Of a stretch of DNA of 20,415 nucleotides, positions 5,005 through 20,415 are shown in pieces (positions within the stretch are counted from its first letter, which is position 1; every line of letters begins with the position of its first letter). The notes beneath the pieces were generated by a model. The model saw nothing but the letters and a program-made list of their open reading frames with translations, was not told where the DNA came from and ran no database searches. A program made the position numbers and the translations under genes. Source of the stretch: a virus; IMG/VR virus record IMGVR_UViG_3300025009_000406, positions 1 through 20,415 of that record; one strand, given 5' to 3'.

Positions 5005-5633
5005 AAGTTTAAATCAATAGAACGTCTACACATTGGTTCTCTTCTACCATTATTGTACAGACAGACAGCTTCTGCATAACTCATTCCCGCATCCAGTCTT
5101 TTATTGAACCACTTGGTAAATGTATCTCTTTGATCCTTCTCATCCTTAAAACAGAATTTTTTATTGCCTTCGACTAAATACCCGATTTGATTTACCTTCC
5201 CTATTGATTCACAATAGACATGAGTTGAACTCAAATCTTGATTAAATCCAATCTCACTCTCCAGATATCTTGTAACCTGATAAATTCTTTCAACTAATGC
5301 CATCCTTTGCTGGGATATTAAAATTTGCTCATCTACCGCCTGTTTTCGGGGCTTTTCCCCTTTTATCGGTGTTCGATACCTTATTTCTATCTTTACTGGA
5401 AATTTAAGCGTAATTTCAATAGGTTTAGGAAATGTTACCTTATGTTCATCATACCATTCGCTCATTTGTCTAAATAGATACCAAGAAAAAGCAAAGGCTA
5501 ATCCCATTCCGAGAAGTATTGACAGCAACTTCAATTTCCACATATTTCTTTTAATGCTTTGTTTAGCTTTCTTTGCTTCTTTCTGAATTGGATGTGTGTT
5601 ACTCTCTAGTTGTTTTATGAGTTTATAATTCAT
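5001..5633 (-). CDS. Membrane-anchored lysozyme/transglycosylase-like protein (putative)
   Basis: A 210-residue protein. The N-terminal 35 residues are basic, followed by one membrane helix at about 35-54 (LLSILLGMGLAFAFSWYLF) and a C-terminal domain of about 150 residues with paired cysteines. Within it, VYCESIGKVNQIGYLV could place a catalytic Glu, and EAVCLYNNG resembles the AxYNxG segment of SLT-type lysozyme folds. I infer a membrane-anchored muralytic enzyme for peptidoglycan passage or lysis, at moderate to low confidence. It ends CRRSIDLNL with TGA overlapping the ATG of the HNH gene. The start ATG 5633 lies 11 bases inside the preceding 46-residue frame. Confidence 0.65.
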   Translation of the reverse strand: MNYKLIKQLESNTHPIQKEAKKAKQSIKRNMWKLKLLSILLGMGLAFAFSWYLFRQMSEWYDEHKVTFPKPIEITLKFPVKIEIRYRTPIKGEKPRKQAVDEQILISQQRMALVERIYQVTRYLESEIGFNQDLSSTHVYCESIGKVNQIGYLVEGNKKFCFKDEKDQRDTFTKWFNKRLDAGMSYAEAVCLYNNGRREPMCRRSIDLNL

Positions 5634-5763
5634 GGTTTAATAAAATTTCTAACAGTTCCAAAAAATGCAGTCTGCAGACAGTAAATCCTATATTTCTCCA
5701 TCCTCTTTTGGCTTGGTATTTTGATATTGGCGTTAGGCAATTCTCGCAAAAATGTTGTTTCAT
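5623..5763 (-). CDS. Zinc-binding microprotein (46 aa)
   Basis: A 46-codon frame that starts on an ATGA overlap with the upstream zinc-ribbon gene and ends 11 bases inside the lysozyme-like gene. MKQHFCENCLTPIS holds a CxxC pair at residues 6 and 9. VCRLHF holds a Cys at 30 and a His at 33, giving a CxxC...CxxH zinc site. It is followed by a short Leu-rich helix. The precise overlaps at both ends and the zinc pattern support a real gene. Function unknown; probably nucleic-acid or protein binding. Confidence 0.6.
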   Translation of the reverse strand: MKQHFCENCLTPISKYQAKRGWRNIGFTVCRLHFLELLEILLNHEL

Positions 5764-5975
5764 AGATTTTTAAAGTAATCAAGTTTTAACTTTTCGGTGA
5801 CTATACTTTCATCTAGTCCATAAATTTTTAAACCAAGGTTAAAGCTTTTAGCCATTTGTTTGGAATATCTTTTGATGTTCCATGCGCCTTGGCAGTTTAT
5901 ACATTTATTGCCGCCATTTAACATTATCCGGAAACTTATGGATATATTACAAATTTCACATTTAAAGTTTTTCAA
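5760..5975 (-). CDS. Zinc-ribbon protein (71 aa)
   Basis: A 71-residue protein with CEIC at residues 6-9 and CINC near 26-29, spaced as in a treble-clef or ribbon fold, followed by a helical basic tail. ATG 5975 overlaps the TGA of the SSB-like gene (ATGA), and its own TGA overlaps the next ATG. The chain SSB-like, zinc ribbon, zinc microprotein suggests a replication-associated set. No family name can be assigned from the sequence. Confidence 0.7.
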   Translation of the reverse strand: MKNFKCEICNISISFRIMLNGGNKCINCQGAWNIKRYSKQMAKSFNLGLKIYGLDESIVTEKLKLDYFKNL

Positions 5976-6517
5976 AAGGGAATATCTTTAGGATCTACAT
6001 TTTCCGTTCCTTCTTTGCTGAAAGGATCATCACCGGAAAATAGAGCCTCTAAATTTATAAATGTTTCTTTGAACTTTTTTGCTATATCTGGATCAAGTTT
6101 TTTGGGCGGTCTTGGATTAACTTGATATTCAGTATCCATTCCCTCTCCTTCTCTAGTTACGACTACATCGTATTCTAGTGGTGACCCCCAATTTTCCTCA
6201 TCGTCTATCAAAGCTTTCAAGCTTTTAATAATTCCTTTCTGCTTAACTTCCAATATCTGAACCCGTTTCTCCTGATAATTCCAGACCGGAAAAGCCCAGA
6301 AATGTTTAACACCTTCAGCCGAAGTATCATTTAGAGATACTTCTTCTATGGTATGTTTTCTGACAGGCTTTCTGTCTTTAGTTCCTTCCTGCCCCGTCCA
6401 ATATTCCCATCCGGTAATGGCTGATCCTAAAATTCTAAAAGCGTTCGCACCTATTCCCCATCTCATGTAGTTTCCTACATCTTTTGGTACGTTATAGTTC
6501 TTTGGTAAAAAGTCCAT
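5972..6517 (-). CDS. Phage single-stranded DNA-binding-like protein
   Basis: A 181-residue protein. The pattern NYNVPKDVGNYMRWGIGANAF near the start, GWEYWTGQ, then HFWAFPVWNYQEKRVQILEV and YDVVVTREGEGMDTEYQV matches a phage family usually annotated as a putative ssDNA-binding protein. It is beta-rich, OB-fold-like, and its acidic C-terminal tail (ENVDPKDIPF) resembles the terminal DDDIPF of bacterial SSB that docks partner proteins. I chose ATG 6517, which lies in a TAATATG junction; upstream in-frame starts (TTG 6586, ATG 6571) would add a hydrophobic stretch not expected in this family. Expected role: coating ssDNA in replication and recombination, with the NinG-like nuclease nearby. Confidence 0.78.
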   Translation of the reverse strand: MDFLPKNYNVPKDVGNYMRWGIGANAFRILGSAITGWEYWTGQEGTKDRKPVRKHTIEEVSLNDTSAEGVKHFWAFPVWNYQEKRVQILEVKQKGIIKSLKALIDDEENWGSPLEYDVVVTREGEGMDTEYQVNPRPPKKLDPDIAKKFKETFINLEALFSGDDPFSKEGTENVDPKDIPF

Positions 6518-7419: not shown

Positions 7420-7547
7420 TTTGTCTGATTGATATTGTCTACTATCAACCTTCTTAAATACTCAGAAAAAGACATACCGTAGCGTTTACGTTCTTTATTT
7501 ATATAGTTTATCTGCTCTTTAGGGAGGGTTATTGTTTTTTTAATCAT
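7416..7547 (-). CDS. Ribbon-helix-helix DNA-binding protein (43 aa)
   Basis: A 43-codon frame: IKKTITLPKEQINYINKE, then GMSFSEYLRRLIVDNINQ. This is the Arc/CopG ribbon-helix-helix pattern: a basic beta strand (KKTITLP), helix A, a turn with Ser-Glu, and helix B. ATG 7547 overlaps the TGA of the 618-residue gene and its TGA overlaps the ATG of the next gene. An alternative ATG at 7553 adds two residues. RHH proteins bind short repeats as dimers and often repress their own promoter; the AGTATAC repeats in the operon promoter are a candidate site (inference). Confidence 0.75.
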   Translation of the reverse strand: MIKKTITLPKEQINYINKERKRYGMSFSEYLRRLIVDNINQTK

Positions 7548-9400
7548 TGCCATAATAATTTTATTATGCTGTCTTTTTCCAAAATCTCAGGAGAAAGATC
7601 AATTTCACAATTATTTTTGTCAGTTAATTTGGCTCCTGCTTCTACTAACATTTCATTTAAATTGAAAGCGTTTTTATAAAATCCTAGAAGATATTTTCGG
7701 CTATGTTCTACAAAGTCTGAGCTAGATGAGGTGATTGACCTTCCAAGATAAATTTCTGAGAAATAGAATCGGCATTCGTTAGTTGTTACAGACAGGAGTC
7801 CTAGTATTTTTTGCTTTTGATTTATCTTTGATTCAGCTTGAGCAATAATGTTATTAGAATTAACCATATAGTTTTTTCTCATATTTACAGCTTGTTCTTT
7901 GGCTACAAATATTTTTATCGGTACTTCTACATCTTTATCATGGTTGTAATAATTAACAGCTACTATGAAAGAATTTTTAGTTTGTCTTTTAATATAAAAT
8001 AACTCGCTTGCTCCGTTTTGAGCGTCTGTCATGTCGCCTGAAAATAATATGTTACCTTCTTCACTTCTATAGTTTGCATCCCAACCAAATTTACCGTCTA
8101 CATTGATTAAAGAAAAATCTAAGTCTATTCTATTGTTACCAACATTATCCCAGTGGACTCCAACTATCATATCTTTTGGAATAGAAATATAAGTCCCTGA
8201 TGGAAAATATCCTGTAAATTGTTTTTCTGTTGCGGATAGAGCGTAAACTATATTTTCTGGAATATAAATATTCTTACCTTTTACTTGTTTCCCTATATCC
8301 TCAATAATGGATTTTTTAACAATCTCTAAAACTCTTCCGGCTTCTGACCTATTGCTGAAATTAAATTCAGTTGCGTATCCTTTACCATTTCTTATCTTAT
8401 AGAGAATTGATCCTATATCTTTAGTTCTGTAGGTTAGAGCGTAAGCTAAACGTATTTTTCTAAATATATTAGCCCTAGATAATGAGTCTTTAAGTAATTT
8501 CTCGTCTACCAATTCAATGTTTGCAGTTATTGTATTTAAGTAATCCTCCTCCATAGGTTTATGATTTTTAACTGCTAGTTTTCTAATTTTATTGATCATC
8601 TTTTTTAATTGGCTATTAGTTCTGAAGGCTAAGAATAAGGGTTTAAATCTGTAGAATATAGAAGACAGTTTTTCAAGTCCATGTTTTTCTTTATACTTTA
8701 ACACTAGCTTGGTAACTCCTAGATTTTGTTTTTCCTTAATCTTTTCTATTAGCTCCTCATTTTTAATAATTAAAGTAGTTTCTGTTGATTTGTAAATAAT
8801 ATATCTCAAGAACTCTACCGGATTTTCTGGAACTAATCCTAAATATTCATATAGAGCGGTTTTAACCTCCTTGTTCTTAATTTCCTGTATCTCTTTCTCG
8901 TTCAACTCAACAAATAGGGCAACATTTGTTACATCTTTTAGCGTTTCTTCTTTTAGTGCAATCCCCGTTTGAAGTAGATTTAATAATTTAACTTTCAACT
9001 CTTCTTTGGTGTAACCCTTAATTACTATTAATTTTATTTTATCTAAATCAATATCAGGAACATTTAATGCCTCGCTTGGTATGTAAACGTAATCTTTATC
9101 GTATATTCCTAAGTTTTCCAATCCGTAAGTTGTGAAGTAATGAATGAGCTGTTCTATTACCAGTTGTTCAATACTTGCTGTTATTATCTTCTGCCATGAC
9201 TTATGAAAGGAACTATTTAATTCTTCACCGGATAATCCTATTTTCAGTTTAAGTAGTTCTTGATCGCTATAATTGGAAAATACTTCAGGAGAAAAGATAA
9301 AACCACGTTTAATTGTATCAGCGGTTACTTGTTCATTAAGTTTACTCTTACTTTTAGTCTTAATAGGAAGTGCTTTAAATAATCTTATGGTGCTTTCCAT
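7544..9400 (-). CDS. Large TerD-domain-like protein (MXAN_6230/SCO0854-like)
   Basis: A 618-residue cytoplasmic protein, first gene of the leftward operon. Residues about 1-390 are mainly helical with no recognised catalytic site. Residues about 400-540 resemble the TerD-like domain seen in MXAN_6230/SCO0854 proteins: YFPSGTYISIPKDMIVGVHW, then RIDLDFSLINVDGKFGWDA with the Asp-Leu-Asp calcium-site pattern, then LFSGDMTDAQNGASELFYI. TerD domains belong to tellurite-resistance and stress systems linked to phage inhibition and to Ca2+-dependent assemblies; their biochemical role is unsettled. ATG 9400 lies about 55 bases after a predicted start site and is preceded by a 5' hairpin, with no Shine-Dalgarno. 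As the promoter-proximal gene, it may be an early takeover or exclusion protein (inference). Confidence 0.72.
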   Translation of the reverse strand: MESTIRLFKALPIKTKSKSKLNEQVTADTIKRGFIFSPEVFSNYSDQELLKLKIGLSGEELNSSFHKSWQKIITASIEQLVIEQLIHYFTTYGLENLGIYDKDYVYIPSEALNVPDIDLDKIKLIVIKGYTKEELKVKLLNLLQTGIALKEETLKDVTNVALFVELNEKEIQEIKNKEVKTALYEYLGLVPENPVEFLRYIIYKSTETTLIIKNEELIEKIKEKQNLGVTKLVLKYKEKHGLEKLSSIFYRFKPLFLAFRTNSQLKKMINKIRKLAVKNHKPMEEDYLNTITANIELVDEKLLKDSLSRANIFRKIRLAYALTYRTKDIGSILYKIRNGKGYATEFNFSNRSEAGRVLEIVKKSIIEDIGKQVKGKNIYIPENIVYALSATEKQFTGYFPSGTYISIPKDMIVGVHWDNVGNNRIDLDFSLINVDGKFGWDANYRSEEGNILFSGDMTDAQNGASELFYIKRQTKNSFIVAVNYYNHDKDVEVPIKIFVAKEQAVNMRKNYMVNSNNIIAQAESKINQKQKILGLLSVTTNECRFYFSEIYLGRSITSSSSDFVEHSRKYLLGFYKNAFNLNEMLVEAGAKLTDKNNCEIDLSPEILEKDSIIKLLWQ

Positions 9401-9408
9401 AATTTAGT

Positions 9409-9455
9409 AAGGCGGGAAGTAAAAAAAGCATTTTATTAGGAACTTCCTATGCCTT
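9409..9455 (-). promoter_or_regulatory. 5'-terminal stem-loop in the leader of the leftward operon
   Basis: In the leftward RNA, AAGGC pairs with GCCUU and GGAAGU with ACUUCC across a small internal loop (arms 9455-9442 and 9420-9409), enclosing a U-rich loop of about 21 bases. The predicted transcription start falls on the first base of the stem, and the stem ends eight bases before ATG 9400. A short 18-codon frame starting at ATG 9431 overlaps the gene start and could be a leader peptide. A terminal hairpin can protect mRNA or gate initiation. Confidence 0.5.
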
Positions 9456-9461
9456 GCTTAC

Positions 9462-9480
9462 AGTATACAGATAGTATACT
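9462..9480. promoter_or_regulatory. Candidate operator: AGTATAC repeats spaced 11 bases
   Basis: AGTATAC occurs at 9462-9468 and again at 9473-9479, where it extends to the palindrome AGTATACT. The 11-base step puts both on the same helix face, and one copy covers the -10 box. A dimeric repressor such as the ribbon-helix-helix protein of this operon could bind here. This is inference; no binding data can be derived from sequence. Confidence 0.45.
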
Positions 9481-9490
9481 ACATTGTCAA
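9462..9490 (-). promoter_or_regulatory. Strong sigma70-type promoter of the leftward operon
   Basis: Leftward TTGACA (9490-9485), exactly 17 bases, then TATACT (9467-9462): perfect -35 and five of six at -10. The predicted start is near 9455, giving a 5' leader of about 55 bases before the 618-residue gene. No other promoter this good is seen for the operon. Confidence 0.8.
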
Positions 9491-9499
9491 CTGTATTTA

Positions 9500-10230
9500 T
9501 CTTAAGCTAAGTATTGATTTCCAAGCATAGATCTTAGATCCTTATTTGGGTTAAGGTTTCGTAAGGTCTGTTTATCCGTTGTATCTCGGCAAACCTCTAG
9601 ATCTATCTCTCCTGCCTAGTTGTGATTTAACAATCGTGCAAGGTCGGGGTACGTTAAGATCTAATTAAACTACACCGTACATACTCGATTTCCTTAGCTG
9701 AGTCTTGAGTCCCTATTCCCCAATACTTTTTTTATACTGGTTCGTTTCCAGTGCCGTTGGGGGCTGTCGCTTTGGTCGGCTTAATTTATATGATTTATAG
9801 TAGTTATAGAAATCCGGTGAGGAAGTTTTTAGAAGTTGTCTGACGAAGATTATTTTATTTTTAACCGAGTCGTTCATAAAAAAACGAGCTTTGTGAAATT
9901 GGCAGGCGTAACACCAGTTTGGCAAGGTATTCCCTTACCAACTTCACAAAACTCGTTCTATAGTGTTACTTCCTTCAGCCCCTTGCCTAGGCTGGCCCAC
10001 TGCATCGGTGGGAGGTTTGTCGTCCCCTTTTTATCTTCTTTAACTCTATCCAAGCGTACTCGCCTTCGCAATTAAACTTGAATAGGATTAAAAAAGATAA
10101 CCCCCTAATATGAGCGACCTAGAATAAATGCGTTAGGTAAAGAATAGATCCTAAGACAGTTCTTTACGATCCGACTTAAAATCCTAGACTCGTCTGATTG
10201 AGTAATTGAAACGAACAAAAAAACTCAATC
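9500..10230 (-). ncRNA. Candidate large structured non-coding RNA
   Basis: This tract of about 730 bases holds no convincing gene, yet a near-consensus leftward promoter fires into it. The predicted RNA would open with an 8-base-pair hairpin (10230-10223 with 10203-10196) and then form several stems. These are UAGGAUU/AAUCCUA (10186-10180 with 10089-10083) enclosing GUAAAGAA/UUCUUUAC (10167-10160 with 10144-10137), CCCAC/GUGGG (10012-9996 region), CAGCC/GGCUG (9994-9976), a 20-pair stem at 9957-9883, and CCCCAA/UUGGGG enclosing ACUGG/CCAGU (9762-9718 region). In the 20-pair stem the two non-Watson-Crick positions are G.U in the leftward RNA but C.A in the rightward one, which favours this strand. 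The 3' end is uncertain; a U-tract near 9880 could end it early. Large phage RNAs such as GOLLD and ROOL are possible relatives, but I cannot test this. Confidence 0.5.
9878..9957 (-). terminator. Long 20-bp stem followed by U-tract (possible terminator or RNA core)
   Basis: In the leftward RNA the arm AACGAGUUUUGUGAAGUUGG (9957-9938) pairs over all 20 bases with 9902-9883, including two G.U pairs. The loop can form a GGUAAGG/CCUUGCC hairpin that shares two bases with the outer stem. The right arm runs into seven U (9884-9878). This could end the RNA that starts near 10230, or be an internal domain of a longer structured RNA. A leftward frame (9925-9713) and a rightward frame (9836-10075) crossing it are judged spurious. 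Confidence 0.5.
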
Positions 10231-10236
10231 AATATA

Positions 10237-10265
10237 AATATAAACCTTTATTTTATTTTTGTCAA
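10237..10265 (-). promoter_or_regulatory. Strong sigma70-type promoter firing into the gene-free tract
   Basis: Leftward TTGACA (10265-10260), 17 bases, then TATATT (10242-10237), five of six at -10. The predicted start is near 10230, at the first base of the GAUUGAGU hairpin. No coding frame follows for about 800 bases, which is why a non-coding RNA is proposed. It lies between the tract and a rightward gene, whose own weak promoter (TAAAAT at 10270-10275) overlaps on the other side. Confidence 0.7.
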
Positions 10266-10532: not shown

Positions 10533-10539
10533 ATTATTG

Positions 10540-11001
10540 GTGAACTATCTTAATAAAGTTTCAAACTCTATCATAAACTCAATCAAAAAAGGGGGCAAAC
10601 TTCTTATCTGCGGAAATGGAGGATCAGCCGCCCAAGCAATGCACTTCGCTGCCGAACTGATAGGCAAATATCAGTATGGGATGTTGGAGCGAAGAGGACT
10701 ACCTGCTATCGCCCTAACCGCAAACGTTTCCTCCTTAACCGCCATAAGTAATGACTGGGGTTTTGATTACGTCTTTTCCCGACAGGTCGAGGCTCTGGGA
10801 AATAAAGGGGATATCCTTTTTGTTATCTCAACCTCCGGCAAATCAAGAAACTGTCTTGAGGCCGTTAAGATTGCTAGAGAAAAAGGCTTAGAGGTTATTG
10901 ATTTGGCAAGAAATCACGGTAAGACTGCGGCCGAGATTCAAGAATACCAATTGAAATTAATTCATCAGTTAACGGGAAAAATTGAGAAAGCCTTTTTATG
11001 A
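10540..11001 (+). CDS. gmhA: Sedoheptulose 7-phosphate isomerase (phosphoheptose isomerase)
   Basis: A 153-residue SIS-domain enzyme that converts sedoheptulose 7-phosphate to D-glycero-D-manno-heptose 7-phosphate, the first step of heptose synthesis. The phosphate-binding segment KLLICGNGGSAAQAMHFAAE and the second SIS segment GDILFVISTSGKSRNCLEA are intact. The Glu of FAAEL and the His of KLIHQL align with the two catalytic residues known in bacterial GmhA. It is shorter than the usual 190 or so residues: the N-terminal helix is trimmed and a segment between DLARNHG and AEIQEYQ is missing. I chose GTG 10540; TTG 10537 is directly before it. Its TGA overlaps the ATG of a 24-residue microprotein. 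Its base composition looks richer in G and C than the early genes, hinting at separate acquisition. Confidence 0.9.
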   Translation: MNYLNKVSNSIINSIKKGGKLLICGNGGSAAQAMHFAAELIGKYQYGMLERRGLPAIALTANVSSLTAISNDWGFDYVFSRQVEALGNKGDILFVISTSGKSRNCLEAVKIAREKGLEVIDLARNHGKTAAEIQEYQLKLIHQLTGKIEKAFL

Positions 11002-11072
11002 ATAACTTTATTATTATTGCAAGCACTATGGCAATTGCAGTATTTTATTTATTAATTAGATTAGGAAAATGA
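10998..11072 (+). CDS. Hidden 24-residue membrane microprotein between gmhA and hddA
   Basis: A 24-codon frame, MNNFIIIASTMAIAVFYLLI then RLGK, fills the gap between gmhA and hddA exactly. Its ATG overlaps the gmhA TGA (ATGA, 10998-11001) and its TGA overlaps the hddA ATG (ATGA, 11069-11072). Almost the whole peptide is one transmembrane helix. The double overlap is hard to explain by chance. It may act as a real membrane microprotein or merely carry ribosomes from gmhA to hddA; AGGA just before the hddA ATG is too close to be a good ribosome-binding site on its own. Confidence 0.6.
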   Translation: MNNFIIIASTMAIAVFYLLIRLGK

Positions 11073-12013
11073 GAGTTTCAGCTATTGCTCCAACTAGAAT
11101 TTCTCTTTTCGGTGGCGGAACTGATGTAGACCCTTACGCCTCGGAATTTGGAGGCGCAGTAATTAATTTGGCTATAAATATAAGGCAGCACCTAATTTTA
11201 TATACTAAAGACGACATCTGGAATCCGGAAAGTTCATTTAATAGTTTTCCCAACGGAGCAGACCCCAATTTCTACTTTAATATTTTGAAATCCTACAAAC
11301 TTAATGGAGGACACCAGACAAAAATCGTTTCCCGCTATGACGGATTCATAAAATCAGGTCTTGGTTCGTCTGGGGCAGCGGGAGTTAGTTTGGTTGGGGC
11401 TATCAATAAAGCATTTTCTTTAGGCATGACAAGGCACGAAATAGCAGAAAACGCCTGGCAAAACGAGATAGACTTTGGTATTTATACAGGCAAACAGGAT
11501 CAGTTCGCTTCAGTTTACGGGGGATTAAACTACTTCAGTTTCAGCGATAAAGTTGAGGTAGTTAAAATCACTCCGCCCCCCGAACTTACAAATTGGATGG
11601 TTCTTTTCTATACGGGAGGCGAAAAGAAAGACCACAATGTCCAAAAGGGATTCATCAATCCCGACAGGAAAAAGTTAAGAGCTTTAGATACCTTGAAATA
11701 CATAACCGGACTCGCCCTTCCTTTGTTTTTAACTGGAAAATGCAAAGAAATAGGCGAGCTTCTGGATTTAAGCTGGCAATATAAAAAGAAGTCCAATAAA
11801 GTCACAAACGACAGAATTGACGATATCTATTCTTTGGCAAAAGATGAAGGGGCGATAGGGGGAAAGATCTGTGGGTCGGGTGGAGGAGGCTATATGTTTT
11901 TTATGTGTCCGCCTGAGAAAAGGGAAAATTTGGTAAGAAAAATGAGGAATTTCAAGATTGGACAAGTTGATTTTAATATAGATTTTGGGGGATTAGATGT
12001 AAGAGTCTTATGA
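11069..12013 (+). CDS. hddA: D-glycero-D-manno-heptose 7-phosphate kinase (GHMP family)
   Basis: A 314-residue GHMP kinase. It has all three family motifs: APTRISLFGGGTDVDPY near the N-terminus (substrate side), KSGLGSSGAAGVSLVGAIN near residue 92-110 (the ATP phosphate loop) and GGKICGSGGGGYMFF near residue 263-277. GKQDQFASVYGG is typical of heptose/fucose-type members. HddA phosphorylates D-glycero-D-manno-heptose 7-phosphate at C1 with ATP, giving the alpha-1,7-bisphosphate. It starts on an ATGA overlap with the membrane microprotein and ends on an ATGA overlap with an HNH gene. Length is close to normal. The direct product of GmhA is its substrate, so the cassette makes biochemical sense. 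Confidence 0.93.
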   Translation: MRVSAIAPTRISLFGGGTDVDPYASEFGGAVINLAINIRQHLILYTKDDIWNPESSFNSFPNGADPNFYFNILKSYKLNGGHQTKIVSRYDGFIKSGLGSSGAAGVSLVGAINKAFSLGMTRHEIAENAWQNEIDFGIYTGKQDQFASVYGGLNYFSFSDKVEVVKITPPPELTNWMVLFYTGGEKKDHNVQKGFINPDRKKLRALDTLKYITGLALPLFLTGKCKEIGELLDLSWQYKKKSNKVTNDRIDDIYSLAKDEGAIGGKICGSGGGGYMFFMCPPEKRENLVRKMRNFKIGQVDFNIDFGGLDVRVL

Positions 12014-12387
12014 GAGATTTAAAAGGTAGATTTATAAAAGGGAATAAAGGTTTTTGGTTAAATAAGAAACGACCTAATCTAATACAAACTGGGGCTGTAA
12101 AAACAATGTTTAAGAAAGGCCAAAACATAGGAGAAGAAAATATTGAATGGCGAGGAGATAAGGTAGGGTACTATGCTTTACATAGTTGGTTAAAAAGAAA
12201 TTACGGAAAGCCAGATATTTGTAGAGAATGTGGATCTATAAAGAATGTTCAATGGGCTAATTTAAGTTATAAATATAAGAGGGATATTGATGATTGGATT
12301 AAATTATGTTATCGCTGTCATAGAGTATATGACAGAATGAATGGATGGGGATTAGCTAGTCTCAAGTTTAAAGAATTACAAAGATAA
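12010..12387 (+). CDS. HNH endonuclease-like protein inside the heptose cassette
   Basis: A 125-residue protein. A NUMOD-like basic N-terminus (LKGRFIKGNKGFWLNKKRPN) is followed by a compact HNH-like core: YYALHSWLKRNYGKP, then CRECG, then VQWANLSYKYKRDIDDWI, then LCYRCHRVYDR. The CxxC...CxxC zinc site is present; the usual DH is replaced by WAN-type residues, as in a common group of small phage HNH-like proteins, so activity is uncertain. It splits hddA from hddC while keeping tight coupling: ATGA with hddA and TAATATG with hddC. Probably a selfish insertion tolerated because the operon remains readable. Confidence 0.85.
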   Translation: MRDLKGRFIKGNKGFWLNKKRPNLIQTGAVKTMFKKGQNIGEENIEWRGDKVGYYALHSWLKRNYGKPDICRECGSIKNVQWANLSYKYKRDIDDWIKLCYRCHRVYDRMNGWGLASLKFKELQR

Positions 12388-12388
12388 T

Positions 12389-12922
12389 ATGCGTGCTCTA
12401 TGTCTCTGTGCTGGTTATGGTTCACGTTTGGGGGACCTTACCAAAAATAGGCCTAAACCAACTATTGAAATAAATGGGAGGTCAATAATAGATCATATTG
12501 TATCAAAGTTACACATTCATGGGATAACCGAGATCATTGTAAATTTGCATTATTTAGAAAATATGATGACTAATCATTTACAAGATAATGTTCTATATTT
12601 TTATGAGCCTAGACTTCTAGGCCATAAAGGAACGATATTGGCTTTAAGAAAATGGTTGGAAGATGAGGATTTTTTAGTCATAAATGGTGATACTCTTTCA
12701 ACCTTAAATTACACTTCAATGATAATGGCACATAAAAGCGGAATGATTACTTCTTTTATGGATGAAAATAGGGCGGCTGGCACTTGGATATATCCACCGC
12801 TTTATTTTAAAGATCAAAATTTACCTATTAATCCCTATCGTGATCCAATAATTAAATGGTTTGATTTAGGAACGAAAGAGCGGCTTGAGGAGGCTAAAAA
12901 ATATTTTAATCAAAATGAATAA
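12389..12922 (+). CDS. hddC: Minimal sugar-1-phosphate nucleotidyltransferase (HddC-like)
   Basis: A 177-residue nucleotidyltransferase. The signature CAGYGSRLGDLTKNRPKPTI (usually AGxGTRLxPLTxxxPKP) binds the nucleotide, FLVINGDTL supplies the metal-binding Asp, and FDLGTKERLEEAKKYF is the usual C-terminal DhGTxErhxxA motif. In the HddA pathway the expected reaction is heptose 1-phosphate plus GTP to GDP-D-glycero-alpha-D-manno-heptose; specificity cannot be proven from sequence. It is shorter than the usual 220-240 residues, with the segment between the metal site and the C-terminal motif condensed. It is separated from hddA by an HNH gene. The phosphatase GmhB, needed before this step, is not in the window. 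Confidence 0.82.
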   Translation: MRALCLCAGYGSRLGDLTKNRPKPTIEINGRSIIDHIVSKLHIHGITEIIVNLHYLENMMTNHLQDNVLYFYEPRLLGHKGTILALRKWLEDEDFLVINGDTLSTLNYTSMIMAHKSGMITSFMDENRAAGTWIYPPLYFKDQNLPINPYRDPIIKWFDLGTKERLEEAKKYFNQNE

Positions 12923-16321: not shown

Positions 16322-18517
16322 ATGGATTACTCAACAGACACTTTAACAACTAGACAGATGGGACAGGCGGTTGACGATATGATGTCAATGGTTAAAAACC
16401 AACGTTTTCCTTTTGAGAGACGCTGGTATGACAATAACTTCTTTGATGACGGGTATCACTTCCGTTATATGTCAAGAACGGAGAATAAGATTGTTGATCT
16501 GTCAAGAGCCTCGACCATCTGGGCGCCAATGCGCTCAATTCCCAAAGCCAGCAGGCAGATCAGGGGGGTTGCAAATCTTGCCGCAGCCCAAAAGTTTGTG
16601 CCTATCGTATATCCAGAACGCATATCTCCCTCACAGTATCCCCCAGTTCAAGTTCAAGATCCAGAAACAGGACAACCTATAATGCAACAGAATCCAGAGT
16701 TTTTAGAAGCACAGAAAGAGTCCAAAAGAATAGCTCAAGGATCAGGACACTGGATAGAGGAAGAGTTTAAAAAGCTTGAGTTTTCGGAGAAGCTGGCTTT
16801 TATGATTATTCTAACTGCCAAGCATGGTATATCTTACCTTCAAATCTGGCCGGATAATATTGATGAGAGCTTAAAAATGATGGTGTTGGATGCTTTTGAT
16901 ATATATACAATAGGTTCGATTAATGAACTTGAAGACGCCCCATTTCTTATTAAAACCAGACCAAGAACAATCGCAGACATCAAAGCTGACGAAAGGTATC
17001 CACTGGAACAGGTCTTGCAAATCCACCCAGACAACAGGCATGCCTCCTCTGATATCAAGGAGGCTTATGAAAGAGCTAGGCACGGAGATAGGGCGGGAAT
17101 GGATCAGGCCGCAACGGTTCTTGAGAAGGAAGCGTTTATTAAAGAATACTTAAATGATAGCAATATGCCACGTATTAGATTGCAGAAAGATGGCGGAGAA
17201 ATATTAAAGCGAAAGAAAAAGGGCGATCCAGTCATTCGTCAGACATTTGTTGCAGGCAATATCACCTTAAGCGATAAATATTTAAACCTCCCTGGTTATC
17301 CGATTGTTGATCTTCGATTTGAACCGGGTTCGCTTTATCAAGTTCCTCTTATTGAACGCTTCATTCCACAAAATAAGTCGCTAGATTTAGTTGTATCAAG
17401 AGTTGAAAGGTACTTACATACAATGGTTACTGGTTCTTGGAGCGTTAAGTCAGGAGAACCAACCGAACCAGACAATACGGCAGGCGGCCAGATATTCAAA
17501 TACAATACAGTTCCTCCTACTCAAAATCCGATAGCTTCAATTCCTCCTTTTGTCTTCAATTTTATGAATTTGCTTGAGAGTTTAGTCGAAGAACAGGGAG
17601 TAACCACAACTGCATTAGGCAAGCTGCCATCAGGAGTCAAGGCTAATGCGGCCATTGAAACCTTGAAAGAGAGTGAATTTGCTAATCTTACGATACTTCT
17701 AGATAGAGTAAAAGGAGTTGCTAAAAGAACAGCCGAGAAGATGCTTGATTATGCCGATGATTACTTCGTAACCCCTAAAACCGTCTACTACATGGAGAAG
17801 GGCGAGCCACAATACTTTGACATTATAGGAGCTTCTGCTATGGAAAAGCGACAGGATCTAAAAATTGACACAGAACCCTTAAATGCAATACCAATCAAGC
17901 GTGATTATAGAGTAGATATTGAGGTTGAGAGGGGATTGGCCTATACATATCAGGGTAAGAAGGAGGCGGCAAAAGAGCTTGGTGATTATATGATTCAACT
18001 CTCACAATTGGGCTTGGTTGATCCAGAAGTAGTTAAGGTCTATTTGAGAAAACTATTGGAAGTTTACGGATTTGGAGCTTCAAACGAGATCATGGAGGCT
18101 ATGGAGCAGTACACGGCAGCAGGACAGTTGACCGAAGAACAGGTGCAGACTATAAAAATTGCGGTTATAGAAGTGATGAAGGATATGCAAAAAGCTGGAA
18201 TCTTGCCAACGATGGAGCAGAGGATAGAGGAGGGCAAGGTTGCAACAGCGGAGGCTATTCGAGACACAGGTTTAGCCAGCAAAAAGCCTCAAGAGATGAT
18301 TGATCCGCAGGAGCAGGCTAAAAAAGATCAAGAAATGGCTCATTCTGACGAAAAACATCAAATATCTGTGCAAGGAGCGAAACAAAAACAGACAATAGAG
18401 GCAATGAAAGCGGTACAAGACATAAAATTGAAGGATAAAATGGCTAAATCACAGGCCAAAATGATGAAAGGAGGTCAAAATGCCGATAACAAAGACAGGA
18501 AAAGAAGTAATGAGTAA
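16322..18517 (+). CDS. Portal protein
   Basis: A 731-residue portal protein, expected to form the dodecameric ring at one vertex of the head through which DNA is packed and ejected. The N-terminal region (RSIPKASRQIRGVANLAAAQ, then FVPIVYPERISP) is characteristic of the large-portal family I know from podovirus-like genomes. A central region with YLNDSNMPRIRLQKDGG and the segment SIPPFVFNFMNLLESLVEEQ follow, then a long helical C-terminus (residues about 560-731) with Gln/Lys-rich coiled stretches resembling the barrel helices of P22-type portals. An AAGGAAG ribosome-binding site precedes ATG 16322. It follows terL after three small genes. The class, siphovirus or podovirus, cannot be settled here. 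Confidence 0.88.
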   Translation: MDYSTDTLTTRQMGQAVDDMMSMVKNQRFPFERRWYDNNFFDDGYHFRYMSRTENKIVDLSRASTIWAPMRSIPKASRQIRGVANLAAAQKFVPIVYPERISPSQYPPVQVQDPETGQPIMQQNPEFLEAQKESKRIAQGSGHWIEEEFKKLEFSEKLAFMIILTAKHGISYLQIWPDNIDESLKMMVLDAFDIYTIGSINELEDAPFLIKTRPRTIADIKADERYPLEQVLQIHPDNRHASSDIKEAYERARHGDRAGMDQAATVLEKEAFIKEYLNDSNMPRIRLQKDGGEILKRKKKGDPVIRQTFVAGNITLSDKYLNLPGYPIVDLRFEPGSLYQVPLIERFIPQNKSLDLVVSRVERYLHTMVTGSWSVKSGEPTEPDNTAGGQIFKYNTVPPTQNPIASIPPFVFNFMNLLESLVEEQGVTTTALGKLPSGVKANAAIETLKESEFANLTILLDRVKGVAKRTAEKMLDYADDYFVTPKTVYYMEKGEPQYFDIIGASAMEKRQDLKIDTEPLNAIPIKRDYRVDIEVERGLAYTYQGKKEAAKELGDYMIQLSQLGLVDPEVVKVYLRKLLEVYGFGASNEIMEAMEQYTAAGQLTEEQVQTIKIAVIEVMKDMQKAGILPTMEQRIEEGKVATAEAIRDTGLASKKPQEMIDPQEQAKKDQEMAHSDEKHQISVQGAKQKQTIEAMKAVQDIKLKDKMAKSQAKMMKGGQNADNKDRKRSNE

Positions 18518-18683
18518 TATGATGAAAGAATACGGAGCAGAAAAAGGAAAACAAGTATTTTATGCCTCAATTAACGCAGGCAAGGCTGGTAGCTCGAAAT
18601 GGCACGGCAAAAAGAAAAAGAAATCGTCTGGTAAAAGTTATGACCGTGAACATATTAAATTGGCAAGGAGGATGATGAAATGA
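18480..18683 (+). CDS. Small basic phage protein (EYGAEKGKQVFYASINAGK family)
   Basis: A 67-residue, Lys-rich protein. MMKEYGAEKGKQVFYASINA is a signature I recognise from a very common small phage protein of unknown function found next to portal or head genes. The C-terminal half is Lys/Ser-rich, then LARRMMK. It has a very strong Shine-Dalgarno (AAAGGAGGT at 18467-18475) that lies inside the end of the portal gene, and the first 38 bases overlap that gene. Its TGA overlaps the next ATG. Confidence 0.8.
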   Translation: MPITKTGKEVMSNMMKEYGAEKGKQVFYASINAGKAGSSKWHGKKKKKSSGKSYDREHIKLARRMMK

Positions 18684-18922
18684 AAAAATTAGTTTTTTTA
18701 GAATACGCTTTTATCTTTGGGGACGATACCTTTGATAATCTCTATGACTTTGAAAAGTTGTTATCTCAAGTATTCAAAGTTAAGGGTTACGAGGCACGGA
18801 TTATTGACGCCTTGCGAGGATCGGTTGGCAGGCGTGTAATCTATGTCCAAAAGAATACCGATTTGTTAACCAAAACCACAGAAGCCGATAAGGCTAGAAT
18901 TACAGGAGGCAAAAAAATATGA
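18680..18922 (+). CDS. Hypothetical protein (80 aa)
   Basis: An 80-residue soluble protein with predicted alternating strand and helix (MKKLVFLEYAFIFGDDTFDN, then YDFEKLLSQVFKVKGY). It has an excellent ribosome-binding site (AAGGAGG at 18665-18671, eight bases before ATG) and an ATGA overlap with the preceding gene. Its own TGA overlaps the next ATG. It may be a head-tail connector or other virion protein by position; no family recognised. Confidence 0.68.
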   Translation: MKKLVFLEYAFIFGDDTFDNLYDFEKLLSQVFKVKGYEARIIDALRGSVGRRVIYVQKNTDLLTKTTEADKARITGGKKI

Positions 18923-20415
18923 TAGATAGACCTATTTCATCTGGAGCCCATGAAGATGGCGTAAATCAGCAGTTTTCAATTATAGGAGTACAGGGAACTT
19001 TGGGTACTGCGGACACTGGAGGTACAGCTAATACAATTCCTATTGGTGCAAATCCGGCAACTGGAGCAATGTATGTTCAGGATTTATCAGGAGCCTCTGG
19101 AACGACTAATGTTTTAGTTGTCGGAGGAACTTTAAACGCAGGTACAGTTACCGTTGGATCAATCTCAAATATTGGTCAAATTCACAATGCGGGGACATTG
19201 GCGGCAGGCGATAATAATGTCGGAAATGTAGACATCGTAACTATTCCTCAAGTGTCAATTGGAACATTGCCTACTTTAAATCTCACAACGGGTACAATAA
19301 CAACAGGTTCTTTGAGTAATTTAGCTATGCTCCATGCTGGTACTTTGACCACACTTCCTCAAATATCAGTGGGCACTTTACCAACGCTTAATTTGACCAC
19401 GGGAACAATTACGACAGGATCATTGACTAATATTGCACAAGTCCACAATGCTGGAACTCTCGCCGCTGGAGCAAATAATATCGGTGACATTGATGTTGCA
19501 ACAGGCACAGTAACTTTAGTTTCTACCGTAACCACTCTTTCAAATCTAACTAATGGTTCTGTTCGTATGACTGTAGGCACTTTAACTACAGGATCACTCT
19601 CAAATGTTGCGATGCTCAATGCCGGGACAATTACTTCTGTAGGTTCAGTTTTAGGAATAGGGGGAACGGTTACAGTTACGGGTGGAGGTGGCGGTGTTGA
19701 ATATGAAGAAGGAACGTCAGTGGGGACATTTACTTTAAAAGCCATAGGTTATGAGGATGCCGGTGGCACTTTACGACTTCCTTCACCAACTAATCAATTG
19801 CCAGTTGTAGCTACTGGTACAGTTCTTAATACGGGAACAAATGTAAATTTAGTAACTGGAACAGTTACGACAGGTTCACTCTCGAACGTGGCGATGTTAA
19901 ATGCCGGTACGGTTGTTCAAGCGTCAGGTACAACTACATTAGTTTCTACGGTTACAACTCTTTCTAATTTAACCAATGGAAGCGTAAATGTCCTTACTGG
20001 AACTATTCAAAATAGCGGTACTACAACGGGCGTAGGAGTGGTATCAGCCTTAACTGTTGGAACAGTTGGCGGTAAGGCGGCAAGCGGTGCTGCAGCTGTT
20101 GCCAATCCAGTATTAATAGGTGGGACTGATTCAGGTGGAACAGTCTATGTGCCATTGGTTAATTCAGCAGGAGCCATGTCAGTTACAGGAGCTTCAGCAG
20201 GAACTTATGTAAATATATCAACTGGGACACAGCAAACATTGGGGACTGTAGCAGTTGTAAATAATATTGTTACAGGTACTCTTGCCGCATCGGGAACAAC
20301 AACGGGAGTAGGGGTTGTTTCTGCATTAACTGTCGGCACAATTGGAGGTAAGGCAGCTTCAGGAGTCGCAGCAGTAGCTAATCCTGTATTAATTGCTGGT
20401 ACTGACAGTGGCGGG
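18919..20415 (+). CDS. Thr/Gly/Val-rich repetitive virion structural protein (partial)
   Basis: A frame starts at ATG 18919 (strong AGGAGG at 18904-18909, ATGA overlap with the preceding gene) and stays open for 499 codons to the window edge. It starts MIDRPISSGAHEDGVNQQFS. After about 60 residues it becomes a repetitive Thr/Gly/Ser/Val sequence with units such as LTTGTITTGSLSN and a Gly loop TGGGGG near residue 255. Such sequences form beta-helices or extended fibres in tail or capsid decoration proteins. The segment GGKAASGAAAVANPVLIGG is a pattern seen in phage tail/capsid-decoration proteins. Expected role: adhesion or decoration on the virion surface. The C-terminus is cut off. Confidence 0.85.
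   Translation, partial: MIDRPISSGAHEDGVNQQFSIIGVQGTLGTADTGGTANTIPIGANPATGAMYVQDLSGASGTTNVLVVGGTLNAGTVTVGSISNIGQIHNAGTLAAGDNNVGNVDIVTIPQVSIGTLPTLNLTTGTITTGSLSNLAMLHAGTLTTLPQISVGTLPTLNLTTGTITTGSLTNIAQVHNAGTLAAGANNIGDIDVATGTVTLVSTVTTLSNLTNGSVRMTVGTLTTGSLSNVAMLNAGTITSVGSVLGIGGTVTVTGGGGGVEYEEGTSVGTFTLKAIGYEDAGGTLRLPSPTNQLPVVATGTVLNTGTNVNLVTGTVTTGSLSNVAMLNAGTVVQASGTTTLVSTVTTLSNLTNGSVNVLTGTIQNSGTTTGVGVVSALTVGTVGGKAASGAAAVANPVLIGGTDSGGTVYVPLVNSAGAMSVTGASAGTYVNISTGTQQTLGTVAVVNNIVTGTLAASGTTTGVGVVSALTVGTIGGKAASGVAAVANPVLIAGTDSGG
19240..19461 (+). repeat. Protein repeat pair A/B in the structural protein
   Basis: A 36-codon unit at 19240-19347 (TIPQVSIGTLPTLNLTTGTI...) is followed by a 37-codon near copy at 19351-19461 (...LPQISVGTLPTLNLTTGTI...). 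The LPTLNLTTGTITTGSL core is identical in protein but uses different codons for many residues. A shorter related core recurs near 19585 and 19861. Confidence 0.75.
20023..20415 (+). repeat. Protein repeat pair C/D in the structural protein
   Basis: Units of exactly 39 codons lie at 20023-20139 and 20299-20415, both beginning TTGVGVVSALTVGT. I count 36 of 39 residues identical (V/I, A/V and G/A differ) but only 13 of 39 codons identical, so 23 conserved residues use a different synonymous codon. Two serines even switch between AGN and TCN codons. Confidence 0.85.

What the first reader, a model, noticed from the sequence alone, without database searches (positions are those of the whole stretch)
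9500..10230. Candidate large structured RNA under its own promoter
A near-perfect leftward promoter (TTGACA, 17 bases, TATATT) fires into about 740 bases with no gene. The predicted RNA begins with a hairpin and contains several nested stems, including one of 20 pairs. In that stem both non-canonical positions are G.U on the leftward strand and C.A on the other, and the inner GGUAAGG/CCUUGCC hairpin shows the same bias. This is strand-specific evidence for RNA folding. Size and phage setting recall GOLLD and ROOL RNAs, or it may be a new class.
Basis: partly seen in the sequence, partly recalled or inferred. Interest (0 to 1): 0.88.

Follow-up and report, generated by a model that had tools for sequence, protein, structure and literature searches.

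The report
Phage leader RNA beside conserved hairpin
The 740-base stretch is not one giant RNA: it holds a roughly 355-base structured leader that probably ends at a built-in stop signal, then a plain spacer, and just past it lies a small RNA hairpin, absent from Rfam, that travels with one protein gene across phages, bacteria and archaea, often fused to tRNAs and near an RNA-repair ligase.

Summary
Partly confirmed. The promoter (10265-10237, - strand, 11/12) and strand-biased stems are real, but the 740 bases are not one structured RNA. Structure is confined to a leader (10230-10020, z -4.7) and a 20-bp hairpin with a U7 tract (9958-9878, z -7.3) that reads as an intrinsic terminator; the next 380 bases fold like shuffles (z -0.4). 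No Rfam match, GOLLD and ROOL included. In a related phage (two contigs, one leader sequence) the same promoter, +1 hairpin and long stem sit directly before replication genes, so the tract is best read as a cis-acting early-operon leader (processing/attenuation inferred). Just downstream, promoter P2 starts a second unit: a 43-nt hairpin (9453-9411) 10 nt before a 618-aa TerD-like gene. This hairpin is a covarying RNA family without Rfam entry: 172 copies upstream of 83 of 96 relatives' genes (0.15 in shuffles); in 148 Weeksellaceae genomes protein and RNA occur in exactly the same 15; copies fused to intact or permuted tRNAs in 36 of 95 loci; RtcB ligase nearby in 40. It resembles Ro60/Y RNA/RtcB, but the protein is not Ro60 by any test here. 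Function is inferred; no expression data exist.

The parts
10237..10265 (-). Promoter P1, TTGACA-17-TATATT; the same hexamers and spacing in L015/L016
10196..10230 (-). H1, hairpin GATTGAGT/ACTCAATC starting at the predicted +1; conserved in L015/L016
10104..10189 (-). H2 region, predicted stems; not conserved in sequence with L015/L016
10031..10100 (-). H3, long imperfect stem TTATCTTTTTTAATCCTATTCAAG...CTTGGATAGAGTTAAAGAAGATAA; conserved in L015/L016, its 3' arm unchanged
9878..9958 (-). H4, 20-bp stem with inner hairpin followed by U7: terminator-like end of the P1 RNA; absent from L015/L016
9908..9969 (-). Possible competing fold GTAACACT (9969-9962) with GGTGTTAC (9915-9908), only weakly supported
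   Evidence: window z -1.5
9491..9870 (-). Spacer without unusual structure on either strand and without recognisable gene or homologue
9462..9490 (-). Promoter P2, TTGACA-17-TATACT, predicted +1 about 9455
9411..9453 (-). Conserved 43-nt hairpin of a family without Rfam entry (model R1, 48.1 bits, E 1.6e-13)
7544..9400 (-). Gene of the 618-aa protein: helical N-terminal part and TerD-like beta-sandwich; obligate companion of the hairpin family in the genomes tested

Best explanation
Two adjacent leftward transcription units were read as one RNA. Unit 1: promoter P1 makes a roughly 355-nt structured leader of the early (replication-side) operon. It starts with a hairpin at +1, carries long double-stranded stems, and reaches a terminator-like hairpin with a U tract. 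It most likely acts in cis: the +1 hairpin protects the 5' end, the long stem is a processing site of the RNase III kind, and the last hairpin attenuates P1 transcription before the next gene. Shown: promoter sequence, stems, strand bias, U tract, conservation ahead of replication genes in a related phage. Inferred: transcription itself, protection, processing, attenuation. Unit 2: promoter P2 starts about 2 nt before a 43-nt hairpin of a covarying RNA family that is encoded with one protein family. Most likely the protein binds this helix (internal loop AYA/C plus the UCCUAU strand) and forms an RNP that works like Ro60-Y RNA in tRNA damage or repair; in the 5' UTR of its own gene the hairpin may also regulate that gene. 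Shown: family, covariation, linkage, tRNA fusions, RtcB neighbourhood. Inferred: binding, repair role, autoregulation.
For: P1 and its geometry. Strand-specific folding limited to two blocks. Same promoter, H1 and H3 in L015/L016 directly upstream of a 76-aa ORF, a DnaD-like loader and a DnaB-like helicase. No Rfam family. Unit 2: 172 copies upstream of 83/96 genes, 0 antisense, 0.15 in shuffles; 8 of 9 pairs with changes on both sides; arms pair better than arms swapped between copies, 3.73 vs 2.70 of 4; one copy in the window, none in 9500-10230; exactly the same 15 of 148 Weeksellaceae genomes carry RNA and protein, RNA hits beside the gene; tRNA-hairpin fusions in 36/95 loci; RtcB within the flanks in 40/95 loci.
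Against: No RNA reads. Only two distinct leader sequences exist; H3 shows one compensatory and one disrupting change, and H2 is not conserved in sequence. H4 has a long loop for an intrinsic terminator and is not conserved. RNase III and attenuation are analogies. For unit 2 there is no binding data, RtcB was seen in the flanks almost only of bacterial loci (mainly Flavobacteriia), and the window's copy has no tRNA module.
Confidence: 0.6

Rival explanations
1. The P1 product is a discrete trans-acting noncoding RNA of about 355 nt that ends at H4 and acts on other RNAs or proteins, not a leader.
For: Own promoter, 5' hairpin at +1, terminator-like end before the next promoter; no gene inside.
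Against: In L015/L016 the same leader has no such terminator and continues directly into genes.
Confidence: 0.2
2. A single large ornate RNA of about 740 nt (GOLLD- or ROOL-like, or a new class).
For: Whole-tract z -5.9.
Against: The signal comes from two blocks; 9490-9870 at z -0.4; no Rfam match; U tract in the middle; homologue is a short leader.
Confidence: 0.06
3. The stems are DNA-level features (operator inverted repeats at P1, ends of a mobile element or deletion scars) rather than RNA structures.
For: H1 overlaps the start of P1; H4, the spacer and the 618-aa gene are absent from L015/L016 as if inserted.
Against: G.U pairs favour the leftward strand, so folding energies differ strongly between strands, which DNA symmetry does not predict.
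Confidence: 0.12
4. For the neighbouring hairpin: it is only a cis-acting autoregulatory site in the mRNA of the TerD-like gene, with no RNP or repair role.
For: In the window it sits 10 nt upstream of the ATG, at the start of the P2 transcript; most copies lie just upstream of the gene.
Against: One to four copies per locus, copies downstream of the gene in L005, tRNA fusions in 36/95 loci and RtcB neighbours go beyond an operator.
Confidence: 0.3

Closest known systems
Structured 5' leaders of phage early operons (lambda pL leader with its RNase III site; HK022 put leaders), from general knowledge
   Same: Strong early promoter followed at once by hairpins, ahead of replication genes in the related phage; terminator-like hairpin downstream
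   Different: No sequence or Rfam relation; no nut or put motif shown; mechanism not tested
GOLLD and ROOL RNAs (described in PMC12286853)
   Same: Phage setting, noncoding tract with its own promoter
   Different: No covariance-model match; shorter; half of the tract unstructured; the homologue is an mRNA leader
YrlA / bacterial Y RNAs with Ro60 (Rsr) and RtcB (PMC7790460)
   Same: For the neighbouring hairpin family: a protein-linked RNA stem joined, in 36 of 95 loci, to an intact or permuted tRNA; RtcB often nearby; one such copy (L107) scores 39 bits with YrlA
   Different: Stem sequence and internal loop differ; score below Rfam's threshold of 69; no TROVE domain and no Ro60 match for the protein; the window's copy has no tRNA module
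TerD-domain proteins and NCBIfam NF041916 (MXAN_6230/SCO0854 family)
   Same: 26 of 46 members of the protein family match NF041916 (best E 3.6e-9); annotated TerD-like phage proteins are among the best structural matches
   Different: The window protein itself has no NF041916 match at E up to 1 and no Pfam TerD match; no RNA partner is named in what I could read

Membership tests
GOLLD / ROOL | Match to the Rfam covariance model | tested here: not met
   nothing at gathering threshold, nothing relevant at E up to 10
GOLLD / ROOL | One continuous ornate fold over the whole length | tested here: not met
   9490-9870 at z -0.4
GOLLD / ROOL | Homo-oligomeric RNA-only complex (PMC12286853) | not testable with these tools
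   needs purified RNA
Structured 5' leader of a phage operon | Promoter followed by conserved stems directly upstream of genes on the same strand | tested here: met
   L015/L016:
Structured 5' leader of a phage operon | Compensatory base changes in the stems | tested here: inconclusive
   two distinct sequences only; one compensatory and one disrupting change in H3 (read)
Intrinsic terminator (H4) | Stable stem followed by a U tract on the transcribed strand | tested here: met
   but the loop is far longer than the 3-8 of the scan, and termination is untested
Y RNA / YrlA (neighbouring hairpin family) | Match to RF02553 above threshold | tested here: not met
   best 39 bits against 69, in L107; none in the window
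Y RNA / YrlA (neighbouring hairpin family) | RNA stem joined to a tRNA-like module | tested here: met
   36 of 95 relatives, not the window's copy
Y RNA / YrlA (neighbouring hairpin family) | Ro60 (TROVE) protein partner | tested here: not met
   no TROVE hit in Pfam for 46 members, no PDB profile hit, no Ro60 among the 50 PDB fold matches listed
TerD-like proteins (618-aa protein) | TerD-like beta-sandwich in the C-terminal part | tested here: inconclusive
   structural matches to annotated TerD-like phage proteins; no Pfam TerD hit

The most novel reading that the evidence does not exclude
The 43-nt hairpin next to the tract, with its tRNA-fused and permuted versions in relatives, is an undescribed class of protein-linked RNA: a second, Ro60-independent Y-RNA-like system in phages, bacteria and Asgard archaea, in which a TerD-like protein and its hairpin/tRNA RNAs act, in some hosts with RtcB, in tRNA repair or as decoys of anticodon nucleases, and which this phage carries behind a structured early leader.
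Probability: 0.45. Interest if true: 0.88.

Novelty: new variant of a known kind. Interest (0 to 1): 0.62.

Why it matters
The tract itself would be a phage early leader with unusual stems. Its neighbour matters more: an RNA hairpin with heavy covariation, encoded beside one protein family and found nowhere else in the genomes tested, absent from Rfam 15, repeatedly grafted into the anticodon arm of tRNAs and, in Flavobacteriia, close to the RNA ligase RtcB. If the protein binds it, this would be a second route to a tRNA-mimicking RNP of the Ro60/Y RNA kind, shared by phages and cells, and it would make the question of what such RNPs do in tRNA damage directly testable in Chryseobacterium.

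Tried and rejected
GOLLD, ROOL, introns and all other Rfam families: no matches. DNA homologues of the tract among phage records: only chance pieces. The L014 match is a promoter-like 18-mer, not a second RNA copy. Coding relic: the small ORFs have no PHROG match. Relatives of the adjacent 74-aa ORF: L015/L016 again. Further copies of the hairpin inside 9500-10230: none. Ro60/TROVE for the 618-aa protein, my first idea from the tRNA-fused hairpins: not supported. Similarity of the tract to regions upstream of other family members: none beyond the hairpin. Literature searches for the hairpin or protein found no earlier description, but the library lacks most subscription papers and all preprints. 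A first structure model from 6 sequences was poor (pLDDT 69) and was replaced.

Full report
Setting. The window is a 20,415-base IMG/VR virus record with terminase and portal genes rightward and small genes, including an SSB-like protein, leftward. No Rfam family, tRNA or tmRNA is present.

Observation. On the - strand TTGACA-17-TATATT lies at 10265-10237. The expected start, about 10230, is the first base of hairpin H1. The whole tract folds better than shuffles (z -5.9, 20 shuffles), but the signal is local: leader 10232-10020 z -4.7 (antisense -2.2), 9975-9870 z -7.3 (antisense -3.2), 9490-9870 z -0.4. The 20-bp stem is followed by U7 on the leftward strand, so I read it as an intrinsic terminator. 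Before its 3' arm is made, the nascent RNA can form a competing fold (-25 kcal/mol); this would suit attenuation but is not significant on its own (nearest 120-base window z -1.5).

Homologues. Two contigs whose terminase is 93% identical to the window's, L015 and L016, carry an identical leader. It shares with the window the promoter hexamers and spacing, the promoter-H1 stretch (83% identity) and H3 (77%), and a run of 23 bases at the 3' arm of H3 is unchanged. There the leader is followed, about 210 nt from the start, by a 76-aa ORF, a DnaD-like helicase loader and a DnaB-like helicase. The terminator-like hairpin, the spacer, P2 and the 618-aa gene are absent. With two distinct sequences covariation cannot be tested; reading the two stems side by side I see one compensatory and one disrupting change in H3.

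What the tract is. The simplest reading is a cis-acting structured leader of the early operon: a 5' hairpin, long stems that could be RNase III sites, and in this phage a terminator that separates it from the next unit. The functional steps are inference from known phage leaders (general knowledge). GOLLD and ROOL are not supported.

The neighbour. At 9490-9462 a second promoter would start RNA about 2 nt before a 43-nt hairpin (9453-9411), which ends 10 nt upstream of the 618-aa gene. BLAST of the tract against relatives of that gene showed that this stretch is conserved. Relatives come from IMG/VR and GTDB genomes: phages, Asgard and other archaea, Desulfobacterota, Gammaproteobacteria, Flavobacteriia, Fibrobacter. 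In the 700 bases upstream of the gene there are 172 copies of the element in 83 of 96 loci, none antisense, 0.15 on average in shuffles. The 96 loci include some near-duplicates, so 172 is not a count of independent copies; 146 are distinct. The form is GRC-AYA-NNNNGU-UCCUAU ... UU-ACNNNN-C-GYC. In 25 aligned copies 8 of 9 pairs change on both sides and every cell is paired; these copies were chosen by a pairing rule, so that figure is partly built in and the shuffle and linkage tests carry the weight. Without a pairing rule for them, the four variable positions pair at 3.73 of 4 on average, against 2.70 when arms are swapped between copies. The covariance model finds one copy in the window (48 bits) and none in 9500-10230. 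In a 4.5-Mb Chryseobacterium genome it finds only three copies, in one cluster beside the gene. In 148 Weeksellaceae genomes the protein occurs in 15 and the RNA in the same 15.

tRNA fusions and RtcB. By motif search, in 35 loci a tRNA with D and T arms carries the hairpin, opened at its loop end, in place of the anticodon loop; in 4 loci the loop of a hairpin holds a circularly permuted tRNA; 36 of 95 loci have one or the other. Rfam scores several as tRNA; ARAGORN misses nearly all of them. The permuted form in L107 scores 39 bits with YrlA, below the threshold of 69, through the tRNA module. RtcB lies within the flanks of 40 of 95 loci, nearly all Flavobacteriia. [quoted passage not shown] So, in anatomy, the system looks like Ro60/Y RNA.

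The protein. An alignment of 46 relatives gave a confident model (pLDDT 90.6). There is no PDB fold match at E 1e-3 and no Ro60 among the 50 listed; phage proteins annotated as TerD- or tellurium-resistance-like are among the best viral matches. Pfam finds nothing consistent; NF041916 matches 26 of 46 members but not the window protein. Membership in the Ro60 family is therefore not claimed.

Verdict. The finding is a partly correct observation at the wrong scale. I would score the tract alone at about 0.35 and raise the overall score for the adjacent RNA family, which the tract led to and of which I found no description in the library searched.

Noticed in passing
window 9411-9453 (-), and upstream of the gene in L002-L011 and L098-L192: Conserved hairpin family linked to the TerD-like gene, with tRNA fusions and nearby RtcB; outside the coordinates of the finding.
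   Followed up: yes
L007:4269-7077: The gene of the 618-aa protein family appears split in this phage by an insert whose ORF (5093-5998) may be a homing endonuclease.
   Followed up: no
window 10537-12922: SIS-domain isomerase, GHMP kinase and nucleotidyltransferase genes in a row, resembling an activated-heptose pathway carried by the phage; similar genes in L015.
   Followed up: partly
L132:5972-7624 and L136:5925-7514: A HEAT-repeat protein lies directly downstream of the TerD-like gene in these bacterial loci.
   Followed up: partly
L010:11558-12763 and L107:4548-4844: Arrays of ordinary tRNA genes lie close to the hairpin locus in these phages.
   Followed up: no
L008:5590-5800: Upstream of its hairpins this phage has about 200 bases that look as if they could form another multi-branched RNA.
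   Followed up: no
L005:7840-8110: Four hairpin copies lie downstream, not upstream, of the gene.
   Followed up: no
window 18500-20415; L014:4974-7313: Repetitive coding region (repeats rich in GTL/TGS-like motifs) of a 779-aa protein read in full in L014.
   Followed up: no
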